Of a DNA stretch of 64,000 nt, positions 43,387 to 45,812 are shown piece after piece. Position 1 is the first letter of the stretch. The number at the start of each line of letters is the position of its first letter. The translations under genes and the position numbers were made by a program. The notes beneath the pieces are model-generated. The model saw only the letters and a program-made list of their open reading frames with translations, searched no databases and was not told the origin of the DNA. Source of the DNA: Deltaproteobacteria bacterium (GTDB lineage: Bacteria; Myxococcota; Myxococcia; Myxococcales; 40CM-4-68-19); assembly GCA_005879315.1 (NCBI GenBank), contig VBLC01000071.1:1-64000 (forward strand). The letters are read 5' to 3'.

Positions 43387-43412
43387 CGCCCGATGTCCCC
43401 ACGAACGAAAAC

Positions 43413-43468
43413 GAGCTCGGGCACGAGCTCGATGTCGGGCACGATCTCGAGCACGAGCTCGAGCTCGG
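43413..43468. repeat. Imperfect GAGCTCG-rich tandem repeat
   Basis: Units resembling GAGCTCGRGCAC recur four times in about 56 bases after the radical SAM gene. The palindromic CGAGCTCG cores can form small hairpins, so it might act as a transcript end. No supported gene crosses it. The plus-strand frame would read repeats like ELGHEL, probably not translated. Confidence 0.65.
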
Positions 43469-43545: not shown

Positions 43546-44514
43546 ATGCCCGCGCTGCAGATCTGCTACCACGACCACTGCTTCGACGGCGTCGCCTCGG
43601 GCGCCACCTTCCTCCGCTTCTACCGCGAGAAGGTGAAGCCGGTCCGCGAGGTCGCCTTGAAAGGCATGGCTCATCGCGCCGGCCAACTCTTCGGCGAGGA
43701 CGTCTTCCGCGGCGAGGAGAACGCCGTCGTCGACTTCCGCTTCTCCCCCGATCGGCGGCTCACCTGGTGGTTCGACCATCACCAGAGCGCTTTCGAGACT
43801 CCCGCCGACGAGGCTCTCTTCCGCGCCGACAAGAGCGGCAAGAAATTCTGGGACCCGGCCGCCAAGAGCTGCACGCGCTTTCTCGCCCGCATCGCGCAGG
43901 AGAAGTTCGGCTGGGATCCGTCGCCGCTTTCGGAATTGATCGAGTGGGCCGAGCTGATCGACGGCGCGCTCTTTCCCGATCCGCAGATGGCGGTGGCGCT
44001 GACCGATCCGGCGATGCAGCTGATGCTGCTCATCGAAGCGACCAAGGATCCGGAGCTGTGCCCGCGGCTCATCCGGGAGCTGGCCGATCGGCCCTTGAGC
44101 GCGGTTCTCCGGGAAAAGTGGGTGACCGAGCCGCTCGGGCCGCTGCTCGCGCGCCACCGCGAGATCGTCCGCCTGGTGGAGTCGCGCATCCATCTCGACC
44201 GCGGCGTCGCCACCTACGATCTCGCCGACCTGGGCACCGACAACGTCAACAAGTTCATCGCCTACGCTGCCGACGAGCGGGCGCTCTACACCGTCTCGGT
44301 CACGCGCGGACCGAACCGGAGCAAGATCTCGCTCGGCAGCAATCCCTGGAAACAGCAGCAGCGCCGTCACAACCTGGCGCAGATCGCCGAGCGCTATGGC
44401 GGAGGCGGACACCCGGCGGTGGCCGCCATCAGCTTCCCGCCCGACCAGCTGGAGAAGGCTCGCGAAGTGGCGCGCACCATCGCCGACGAGCTGCGCAGTG
44501 CGCCGCACGACTAA
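43546..44514 (+). CDS. DHH/DHHA1-family phosphoesterase
   Basis: This encodes 322 residues. The N-terminal metal site is CYHDHCFDGVASG and the signature DHH is in TWWFDHHQSAFET. The C-terminal DHHA1 domain carries RYGGGGHPAVAAISFP. The family includes pApase/NrnA and c-di-AMP or c-di-GMP phosphodiesterases, so it probably hydrolyses a small nucleotide. The first motif (HDHCFDG) is a variant of the usual DHDxDG. It stands alone on the plus strand, with the inverted-repeat S23 element just downstream. Confidence 0.82.
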   Translation: MPALQICYHDHCFDGVASGATFLRFYREKVKPVREVALKGMAHRAGQLFGEDVFRGEENAVVDFRFSPDRRLTWWFDHHQSAFETPADEALFRADKSGKKFWDPAAKSCTRFLARIAQEKFGWDPSPLSELIEWAELIDGALFPDPQMAVALTDPAMQLMLLIEATKDPELCPRLIRELADRPLSAVLREKWVTEPLGPLLARHREIVRLVESRIHLDRGVATYDLADLGTDNVNKFIAYAADERALYTVSVTRGPNRSKISLGSNPWKQQQRRHNLAQIAERYGGGGHPAVAAISFPPDQLEKAREVARTIADELRSAPHD

Positions 44515-44550
44515 AGCCACGCTCAAAAGCTCGTCAGAAAGCCTGAAAGC

Positions 44551-44630
44551 GGGAAAGGGAAGGGGCAGCAGGCGCGTGCCAACACCTACGGCGTTGTCAC
44601 TGGCGCCTGCATTTGGGAAGGAAAAAACCT
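44551..44630. repeat. Left inverted arm of the S23 element
   Basis: The arm begins GGGAAAGGGAAGGGG and contains an outer stem at 44568-44575/44603-44610 and an inner stem at 44581-44586/44590-44595. Its inner end gives the T-tract of the S23 gene's terminator. It is inverted relative to 45074-45154. Confidence 0.8.
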
Positions 44631-44659
44631 CATCCGCAGATCCCGAACCGGCGGATGAG
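44622..44659 (-). terminator. Intrinsic terminator overlapping the S23 stop codon
   Basis: On the minus strand the 9-bp stem CTCATCCGC/GCGGATGAG (44659-44651 and 44637-44629), with a 13-base loop, is followed by GGTTTTTT. This is a canonical Rho-independent terminator. The stem contains the last codons and the TGA (44632-44630) of the S23 gene. Confidence 0.75.
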
Positions 44660-44989
44660 CCCTGAGAGCAGGGCGTGCACGGCGCGCGCGTGCAGAAGTG
44701 CCCGCCGGGCAGGCTCTTGTTTGCAGGTCCCGGCGACCAGCGCGATGTCGAGCGCTGCCGCCGCTTCACAATTCTCGCCGCGGGCAATCGCATAGACGCG
44801 AGCCTTGTCGGCCGAACCTGCACGTCCAGCCGCTTCGGAGATGTTCAAACAAACGCTGGTCGCAGCGCGTAAGGCTTGATCGCGCAGGCGACCATCGCTG
44901 ATGCCCGCCTCCCGCATCGTCTCGAGCAGTTTGCGAGCCTCCTGGTAAGCGATCAGTTTCTCAAAGGGAAGACTTCCAAAGTTCGTCAT
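44630..44989 (-). CDS. Four-helix bundle protein (23S rRNA intervening-sequence S23 family)
   Basis: This encodes 119 residues of the S23/four-helix-bundle family: FEKLIAYQEARKLLETMREA, LRDQALRAATSVCLNISEAA, then KARVYAIARGENCEAAAALD and a final helix. Members are small pentameric basic proteins found in rRNA intervening sequences and related to the diversity-generating retroelement accessory protein Avd. Their role is unclear, perhaps nucleic acid binding. GAGGAG sits 6 bases before the ATG but within a 21-bp stem (44981-45037), so translation may be restrained. The gene ends in its own terminator and is enclosed by inverted REP-like arms. Confidence 0.85.
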   Translation of the reverse strand: MTNFGSLPFEKLIAYQEARKLLETMREAGISDGRLRDQALRAATSVCLNISEAAGRAGSADKARVYAIARGENCEAAAALDIALVAGTCKQEPARRALLHARAVHALLSGLIRRFGICG

Positions 44990-45037
44990 CGCCGGCTCCT
45001 CTCAAAAAAGCGCAGCGAGGAGCCGACGATGACGAAC
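44981..45037 (-). promoter_or_regulatory. Long hairpin sequestering the S23 ribosome-binding site and start codon
   Basis: Bases 44981-45001 and 45017-45037 are inverted copies with 20 of 21 matching, separated by a 15-base loop. In the minus-strand transcript the 3' half contains GAGGAG and the AUG of the S23 gene, so both are paired. The other half carries a mirrored GAGGAG and ATG on the plus strand. This may block translation unless opened. Confidence 0.65.
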
Positions 45038-45073
45038 GATTGGAATCCCGAGAAACAGACGCGCCGAAGGCGA

Positions 45074-45154
45074 AGGCTTTTTCTTTCCCAAAATGCAGGC
45101 GCCAGTGACAACGCCGCAGGCGTTGGCGCGCGCCTGCGGCCCCTTCCCTTTCCC
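45074..45154. repeat. Right inverted arm of the S23 element
   Basis: This arm contains outer stem 45095-45102/45130-45137 and inner stem 45110-45115/45119-45124. It has a T-rich inner end (GGCTTTTTC), and one extra TTTCCC unit follows it at 45155-45160. It is inverted relative to 44551-44630. Confidence 0.8.
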
Positions 45155-45212
45155 TTTCCCTACTGCCGTTAACCGATGGCCTTGGAGCTGCCCCGGCCGC
45201 CGACGGCACGCT

Positions 45213-45812
45213 TCACTTCTTGCTCTCGACCTGTGCTTCCTTCTTGGCCGCGGTCGGGCTCGCCGTGTATTCCAGCTCGACGTCGAGGCCGATCTCGTCC
45301 GAGAGCACGACCCCTCCGCCTTCGAGCATCTTGTTCCAGTTGAGGCCCCACTCCGACCGCTTCACTTTCCCGCTGGCGCTCGCGGCATAGACGGTCGCGC
45401 CCCAGGGCGCCTTGACTCCCTTGCCCTCGAACTCCGCGTCGAAGGTGGCCGGCTTGGTCACGCAGCGCATGGTCAGGTCTCCGCTCACCTTGTACTTGCC
45501 GGCGCCCACCGCCTTGGAGATTTTGTTCGACTTGAAGGTGATCTCCGGGCACCTCTGCACGTCGAAGAAGTCGGCGGACTTGAGGTGCGCGTCGCGCTTC
45601 TCGTTGTGCGTGTCGATGCTGGCGGCGTCGATAGTGACGGTGATGGCGCTCTTGGCGGGATCGTCCTTGTCCCAGCTGAGCGTCGAGCTGAGCTTGCTGA
45701 ATTCGCCGCGCACGGTGGTGACCATCAGGTGCTTGGCGGTGAAGGAAGCGGTGCTGTGAGCCGGGTCGGCCTGCAGCTCCACTGCGGCGGCGAGAAAGAG
45801 TGCGAGCATCAT
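45213..45812 (-). CDS. YceI-family periplasmic protein
   Basis: This encodes 199 residues with a short signal peptide (MMLALFLAAAVELQA). The YceI lipocalin-like barrel follows: DPAHSTASFTAKHLMVTTVR, GEFSKLSSTLSWDKDDPAKS, HLKSADFFDVQRCPEITFKS and SEWGLNWNKMLEGGGVVLSD. The family binds polyisoprenoids or other amphiphiles in the periplasm. The tail after the barrel is lysine- and glutamate-rich. AAAGGAG lies 9 bases upstream of the first of two ATG codons. It follows the gshA-like gene by 13 bases and is likely co-transcribed with it. Confidence 0.9.
   Translation of the reverse strand: MMLALFLAAAVELQADPAHSTASFTAKHLMVTTVRGEFSKLSSTLSWDKDDPAKSAITVTIDAASIDTHNEKRDAHLKSADFFDVQRCPEITFKSNKISKAVGAGKYKVSGDLTMRCVTKPATFDAEFEGKGVKAPWGATVYAASASGKVKRSEWGLNWNKMLEGGGVVLSDEIGLDVELEYTASPTAAKKEAQVESKK

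What the first reader, a model, noticed from the sequence alone, without database searches (positions are those of the whole stretch)
44551..45154. S23 four-helix-bundle gene enclosed by inverted REP-like arms: possible undescribed mobile element
Seen: two arms of about 80 bp (44551-44630 and 45074-45154) are inverted copies with about 91% identity. Each arm can fold as a double hairpin with an outer 8-bp stem and an inner 6-bp stem. Between them is one gene of the S23 family, known from 23S rRNA intervening sequences, with its own terminator and start-site hairpin. Established: rRNA intervening sequences have pairing ends and can encode S23; REP/RAYT systems have a gene flanked by inverted palindromes. 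Inference: this is a free-standing element of about 600 bp combining both plans, perhaps moved in trans. A full transcript would pair its ends.
Basis: partly seen in the sequence, partly recalled or inferred. Interest (0 to 1): 0.85.

Follow-up and report, generated by a model that had tools for sequence, protein, structure and literature searches.

The report
Jumping DNA element carrying S23 gene
A roughly 670-base insertion between two genes of a myxobacterium-like genome is one of at least ten related copies of a small mobile DNA element whose only gene is S23, a protein family of unknown function previously known mainly from inserts in ribosomal RNA genes, so the old guess that S23 belongs to mobile DNA can now be tested.

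Summary
In detail: two ~80-nt inverted arms (91% identical) enclose one S23-family gene (PF05635). It is a mobile element. The arms recur at about 15 places in the same genome, mostly paired around S23 genes. The insert is missing from the same DHH/YceI site in three congeners, where the two stop codons are only about 5-24 bp apart or closer; a second copy (C83) and an Anaeromyxobacter copy also have empty sites in relatives. Resident copies and short S23-less derivatives share CAATGCC.. termini and 10-bp target duplications centred on convergent stop codons. That is DNA-transposon behaviour and argues against REP/RAYT mobility; no RAYT, GTAG tag or reverse transcriptase goes with the element. 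Two features are new and conserved across Myxococcota despite unrelated sequences: a double hairpin with a constant GYGCC/GKCAC internal motif, and a ~23-bp start-site hairpin that hides the S23 Shine-Dalgarno and start codon (45/54 genes, against 17/283 controls). S23 is under purifying selection (dN/dS ~0.08-0.10 in the genus). No transposase was found inside the element. My best reading is an insertion-sequence-like family whose only protein is S23, catalysis being supplied in trans or by S23 itself; these two cannot be separated here.

The parts
44515..45184 (.). Whole inserted element; left end abuts the DHH-family gene's stop codon (TAA, 44512-44514), right end lies about 30 nt before the YceI gene's stop codon
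   Evidence: Absent in the same gene pair of G004, G005, G006; end limits from alignment with other copies
44515..44550 (+). Left terminal sequence, shortened relative to full copies (outermost CAATGCC.. part is missing)
   Evidence: Alignment with C40, C83, C19 ends
44551..44630 (+). Left arm: GGGAAA-type 6-mer tract plus double hairpin
44568..44610 (+). Double hairpin with GTGCC/GTCAC internal motif
44622..44659 (-). Terminator-like hairpin and T-run overlapping the last S23 codons
   Evidence: Sequence
44630..44989 (-). S23-family (four-helix-bundle, 23S_rRNA_IVP) gene, 119 aa
   Evidence: PF05635 E 4e-15; TIGR02436; PDB relative 2gsc; purifying selection among copies
44981..45037 (-). Start-site hairpin, 23-bp arms, hides Shine-Dalgarno and ATG of the S23 gene
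45074..45154 (-). Right arm: inverted copy of the left arm
45095..45137 (-). Double hairpin with GCGCC/GTCAC internal motif
   Evidence: one of only two such motifs in the 64-kb window
45155..45184 (-). Right terminal sequence CAAGGCCATCGGTTAACGGCAGTAGGGAAA (consensus CAATGCCNATCARTTAACGCCAGTAGGGAAA)

Best explanation
The window holds one copy of a small transposable-element family of Myxococcota whose only gene is S23. SHOWN: it is present in many copies, the S23 gene is selected, its arms hold a conserved double hairpin, its start codon is locked in a hairpin, and it has inserted between convergent genes. In the home genome it makes a 10-bp target duplication centred on the (often overlapping) stop codons (NNN-YTRR-NNN) and leaves S23-less short derivatives. 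INFERRED: it moves as DNA, by staggered cutting of a short near-palindromic target and joining of its inverted ends. S23 (whose solved relative is a homopentamer) binds the arm hairpins or the element's ends as the element's own, tightly repressed mobility factor. The start-site hairpin keeps S23 silent when neighbouring genes read into the element, as 5'-UTR structures do for some IS transposases. The strand-transfer enzyme is either a resident transposase acting in trans or, less likely, S23 itself.
For: About 15 strong arm matches in G000, most of them pairs around S23 genes. Empty sites: C77 locus in G004, G005, G006; C83 locus in G001 and G002, 1-2 bp between stops; Anaeromyxobacter-like G033 locus empty in G035. 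Shared termini found 25 times in the genome against 0 for the control pattern. 10-bp target duplications: 75 of 100 positions match in ten elements; 1 of 200,000 reshuffled pairings reaches this, and 0 of 200,000 for the six outer positions; one is perfect (CAGTTAATCC, C103:74868). S23-less elements share arms with S23-bearing ones in two further arm families; two of them keep a stretch matching one S23 ORF's C-terminal end and arm-encoded tail. Hairpin motif: 42 hits near S23 in 73 kb against 2 in 442 kb elsewhere; the same in named Myxococcota genomes with unrelated stems. Start-site hairpin in 45/54 S23 genes, 17/283 controls. Median dN/dS 0.08-0.10 in the genus. Precedent for RBS-hiding 5'-UTR structure: ISPpu9 transposase (PMC8450116).
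Against: No transposase gene inside, and S23 has no known catalytic motif. Target duplications were seen only in G000; they were not evident by eye in G001/G002, and many copies there have an arm on one side only. The 6-mer arrays of G033 are direct, not inverted. Terminus positions for the duplication test were set by eye, and two ends (C28b, C85b) were partly lost. Four further copies (C77 itself, C85, C16, C28) lack a readable pair of ends. Two of the ten scored elements show no duplication.
Confidence: 0.6

Rival explanations
1. The element is a non-autonomous (MITE-like) transposon moved by an unlinked DDE-type transposase; S23 is cargo that serves the host or stabilises the element and has no role in movement.
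For: Terminal repeats and 10-bp target duplication are typical of DDE transposases. S23-less copies with the same ends exist, so S23 is not needed in cis at each insertion.
Against: No resident IS with these ends was found by the terminus pattern. S23 is the shared protein of elements in several families of the order whose arms and stems are unrelated in sequence. The start-site hairpin resembles transposase control. S23-less derivatives are equally expected if S23 acts in trans.
Confidence: 0.25
2. REPIN/REP-like element moved by the genome's RAYT (Y1) transposases: single-strand excision of hairpins and insertion without target duplication.
For: Double-hairpin arms in inverted pairs between genes; 13 Y1_Tnp matches in G000 and 13-21 in the three S23-bearing congeners.
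Against: Arms and hairpins absent from 13 RAYT loci of G000 and 10 RAYT loci of relatives. No GTAG tag at any of 36 hairpins. 10-bp target duplications. G009 and G015 carry S23 with no Y1 match, and G033 (several closely similar copies) has one weak match.
Confidence: 0.08
3. RNA-level mobility (retrotransposition or rRNA-IVS-like), with S23 acting like its relative Avd together with a reverse transcriptase.
For: S23 belongs to the family that resembles Avd (PMC10053308); a full transcript pairs its ends.
Against: No RVT_1 match in G000, G001, G002, G043, G045, G049, G055 or G016, only one below cut-off in G033. Inverted terminal repeats and fixed-length target duplication point to DNA transposition.
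Confidence: 0.05
4. Not mobile: an old regulatory or terminator cassette between convergent genes, spread by recombination and lost in relatives.
For: Most copies with clear neighbours sit between convergent genes; arms are terminator-like.
Against: Empty sites with few or no bases between stop codons at several loci, target duplications, multiple copies in unrelated places.
Confidence: 0.02

Closest known systems
23S rRNA intervening sequences (IVS) with S23/IVP ORF (Coxiella, Leptospira; PMC4990558)
   Same: Encode S23 as the only ORF; ends pair in RNA; proposed in the past to be remnants of transposition or mobile elements whose ORF is needed for mobility
   Different: Here between protein genes, multi-copy, with DNA termini, target duplication, a start-site hairpin and clear purifying selection; the Coxiella ORF is reported as decaying and probably not expressed
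REP/REPIN-RAYT systems (REPtrons; PMC3733652)
   Same: Inverted hairpin units in intergenic sites
   Different: No GTAG or CGTC tag as a rule, no RAYT linkage, target duplication, low copy number, enclosed gene is S23
TIRtrons (RAYT-like genes in long TIRs; PMC3733652)
   Same: Single gene in long inverted repeats, with repeat families of the ends elsewhere
   Different: Gene is S23, not a tyrosine transposase
Insertion sequences with RBS-hiding 5'-UTR (e.g. ISPpu9; PMC8450116)
   Same: One-gene element with translation start locked in mRNA structure
   Different: No transposase in the element; lock here is a near-perfect ~23-bp hairpin that changes sequence but keeps pairing between families
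Diversity-generating retroelement accessory protein Avd (PMC10053308)
   Same: Resembles the PF05635 family
   Different: No reverse transcriptase in most of these genomes; template and variable repeats not examined

Membership tests
23S rRNA intervening sequence | S23/IVP ORF | tested here: met
   PF05635, TIGR02436
23S rRNA intervening sequence | Located inside an rRNA gene | tested here: not met
   Window copy lies between DHH and YceI genes; the other G000 copies examined lie between protein genes; 23S not assembled in G000
23S rRNA intervening sequence | Ends pair and are excised by RNase III | tested here: inconclusive
   Ends can pair; excision not testable
REP/RAYT (REPtron, REPIN) | GTAG (or CGTC) tag at hairpin | tested here: not met
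   0 of 36 GTAG, 2 of 36 CGTC
REP/RAYT (REPtron, REPIN) | Linked or matching RAYT gene | tested here: not met
   No arms or hairpins at RAYT loci
REP/RAYT (REPtron, REPIN) | No target-site duplication (Y1 chemistry) | tested here: not met
   10-bp duplications
TIRtron | RAYT-like gene inside terminal inverted repeats | tested here: not met
   Only ORF with family support is S23
DDE-type insertion sequence / transposon | Terminal inverted repeats | tested here: met
   CAATGCCNATCARTTA at both ends of full-length G000 copies
DDE-type insertion sequence / transposon | Fixed-length target duplication | tested here: met
   10 bp in G000; not evident by eye in G001/G002
DDE-type insertion sequence / transposon | Encoded transposase | tested here: not met
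   None inside
MITE | Short derivatives sharing ends with a larger parent | tested here: met
   C103, C16:12559, C88, C81, C29 share arms with S23-bearing C84 or C62
MITE | Autonomous partner IS with the same ends | tested here: inconclusive
   None found by terminus pattern with up to 3 mismatches; assembly 97.6% complete
Diversity-generating retroelement | Reverse transcriptase | tested here: not met
   RVT_1 absent from most S23-bearing genomes tested

The most novel reading that the evidence does not exclude
S23 is itself the mobility protein of a new class of transposable element: a 12-14 kDa four-helix-bundle oligomer that recognises the double hairpin or the inverted ends and brings about integration into near-palindromic YTRR sites with 10-bp duplication, by itself or by recruiting a host nuclease. 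rRNA intervening sequences would then be members of this class that settled in rRNA genes.
Probability: 0.3. Interest if true: 0.93.

Novelty: new variant of a known kind. Interest (0 to 1): 0.78.

Why it matters
S23/IVP proteins have had no known function, and the idea that rRNA intervening sequences are relics of mobile elements whose ORF serves mobility (cited in PMC4990558) lacked a mobile example. This family offers recent copies, defined ends, target duplications, empty sites and short derivatives, some in named Anaeromyxobacter strains (A. oryzisoli, A. terrae), so the role of S23 can be tested. It also adds two conserved structures and explains insertion between convergent stop codons by target sequence.

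Tried and rejected
RAYT link: no arms or hairpins at RAYT loci, no GTAG tag. Reverse-transcriptase partner: absent in most genomes. 23S comparison: no 23S in the assembly. Rfam: only chance-level hits. PHROGs: none. Empty-site test for C74 and C40: synteny not kept, so not informative. Single-arm folding energy: unremarkable, so structure was argued by comparison. A large self-comparison of Anaeromyxobacter arrays was uninformative beyond copy identity because the 6-mer arrays match each other in all registers. Literature searches found no description of S23 elements outside rRNA genes; the library holds open-licence papers only.

Full report
WHAT IS THERE. The window lies in contig C77 of a 4.4-Mb, 97.6%-complete genome (G000) whose relatives in the same order include Anaeromyxobacter: locus lengths and places match A. 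oryzisoli SG63 (= G045) and A. terrae SG22 (= G043). Between a DHH-family gene (43546-44514, +) and a YceI gene (45213-45812, -), two convergent genes, lies an insert that holds one S23-family gene (44630-44989, -) and two inverted arms, 91% identical. The S23 call rests on PF05635 and TIGR02436; the solved relative is 2gsc.

IT IS MULTI-COPY. The arm query finds about 15 strong places in the same genome and a few shorter pieces. Mapped together with S23, these give copies C77 (window), C40, C28, C74 (two convergent S23 genes), C85, C16, C39 (S23 internally deleted), C19 and C83 (at a contig end or partial), and short derivatives C28b, C94, C85b, C30 and C40b. The arms are nearly specific to this genome; only a few weak matches occur in G001 and G002. 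S23 genes are multi-copy in many relatives.

IT INSERTED. In G004, G005 and G006 the same DHH and YceI genes lie next to each other, with roughly 5-24 bp or less between the stop codons and no insert. For copy C83, congeners G001 and G002 have the same gene pair with 2 and 1 bp between the stops. For one copy in the complete genome G033, G035 has 13 bp between the aligned flanks where G033 has about 2 kb. At C77 and C83 several relatives agree on the empty state, which favours insertion over deletion.

HOW IT INSERTS. Full copies extend past the arms to similar termini at both ends, CAATGCCNATCARTTA (25 places with up to 3 mismatches, 0 for the reversed control pattern). C77 has lost the outermost left part. 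The bases next to the termini form 10-bp direct repeats: perfect at C103:74868 (CAGTTAATCC), 9 of 10 at C83, C28b and C16:12559, 8 at C85b and C50, 7 at C40 and C103:32296, and none convincing at C88 and C103:6978. Altogether 75 of 100 positions match against 46 expected; 1 of 200,000 reshuffled pairings reaches this, and 0 of 200,000 for the outer six positions. Positions were set by eye and two ends were partly lost, so the exact value should not be over-read. The centre of the duplication is YTRR, usually the overlapping stop codons of two convergent genes. This explains why elements sit exactly 3 nt behind a stop codon: in GC-rich DNA such a target is found mainly there (inference).

SHORT DERIVATIVES. 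G000 also holds S23-less elements with the same termini but other 6-mer arms. Their arms match S23-bearing elements: C84 with C103a, C103b and C16:12559; C62 with C81, C88 and C29. C103a and C103b also match the end of the C84 S23 reading frame, which there runs on into the arm repeats. This is the relation of MITEs to a parent.

CONSERVED ANATOMY. In relatives, arms and stems differ in sequence but the plan repeats: degenerate 6-mer arrays, a double hairpin, a start-site hairpin and S23, in several families as a convergent pair. The double hairpin has the form stem1-GYGCC-stem2-loop-stem2'-GKCAC-stem1'. Under one fixed criterion there are 42 hits within 450 nt of S23 genes (73 kb), 2 in 442 kb elsewhere, 0 in 78 kb around RAYT genes, and 2 in the 64-kb window, namely the two arms. 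In 61 named loci there are 20 near S23 and 2 away, and those 2 have the sequence of the S23-pair hairpins of the same A. terrae genome. Stem 1 varies freely while staying paired: GCAGGC/GCCTGC, TGCATTGG/CCAATGCA, GCATCG/CGATGC, CAAGCCC/GGGCTTG, GCACGC/GCGTGC. The criterion demands pairing, so the near/away contrast, not the pairing itself, is the evidence.

START-SITE HAIRPIN. 45 of 54 S23 genes with an ATG have arms of at least 12 bp covering the Shine-Dalgarno region and start (median 22.5 bp), against 17 of 283 control genes (median 8). In the window the fold has z = -8. Sequences differ between families but pairing is kept. The closest precedent found is the RBS-occluding 5'-UTR of the ISPpu9 transposase (PMC8450116).

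SELECTION. Median dN/dS among copies is 0.08 (G000 a-type), 0.10 (G001) and 0.09 (G002), and 0.17-0.34 in other sets. S23 is therefore not a relic. Pairwise values within a genome share branches and are descriptive.

PARTNERS TESTED. RAYT: thirteen Y1 matches in G000, but their loci carry no arms or hairpins; the tag is missing and G009 and G015 have S23 without any Y1 match. Reverse transcriptase: none in G000, G001, G002, G043, G045, G049, G055 or G016. An IS with the same ends was not found, but an assembly gap cannot be excluded.

MECHANISM. Movement as DNA is well supported in G000. That S23 serves movement is inferred from its being the shared protein of the elements, from selection, and from transposase-like translational locking. 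Which enzyme cuts is not known. Alternatives are listed with their odds; S23 as passenger of a MITE-like element is the strongest rival.

COMPARED WITH WHAT IS KNOWN. rRNA intervening sequences carry S23 and were once proposed to be mobile elements whose ORF serves mobility (cited in PMC4990558); this family is a free-standing mobile counterpart. It fails the tested defining features of REP/RAYT, TIRtron and DGR systems, and has the ends and duplication of a transposon but no transposase. I therefore file it as a new variant of a known kind (small transposon or MITE), with a 0.3 chance of being a new class.

Noticed in passing
window 43412-43467: Another degenerate 6-mer (CGAGCT-type) array lies just upstream of the DHH gene, similar to arms of S23-less elements in this genome, without recognisable termini.
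   Followed up: partly
L203 (C103:74868-75185), L202 (C103:32296-32532), L200 (C88), L198 (C81), L192 (C29), L188 (C16:12559): S23-less inverted elements of about 170-320 bp with the same termini and other 6-mer arms, some with perfect or near-perfect 10-bp duplications.
   Followed up: yes
L083 (C84:669-1025): The S23 reading frame runs on into the 6-mer arm, giving a repetitive HELDIGHEKEHQ tail.
   Followed up: no
L095-L098, L100, L107-L109: Many G001/G002 copies have arm and hairpin only on the 5' side of S23; the S23 stop lies close to the neighbouring gene. A one-sided form is unexplained.
   Followed up: no
L114, L115, L117 (G033): The long GGTCGN arrays on the two sides of Anaeromyxobacter-type S23 pairs are direct, not inverted.
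   Followed up: partly
L100, L101, L107: Short tandem repeats of the type GGGGACACTCGAT or GGGGACACCTTCC sit directly beside S23 elements; possibly another mobile repeat using the same sites.
   Followed up: no
G000-G003: These genomes hold 13 to 21 Y1 (RAYT-like) transposase matches each, apparently unrelated to the S23 elements.
   Followed up: partly
L077 (C74), L080 (C16), L081 (C19): The second-type (b) S23 genes lack an ATG start, and median dN/dS of the b set is higher (0.25); C77 and C40 seem to be one-gene forms derived from a two-gene ancestor.
   Followed up: partly
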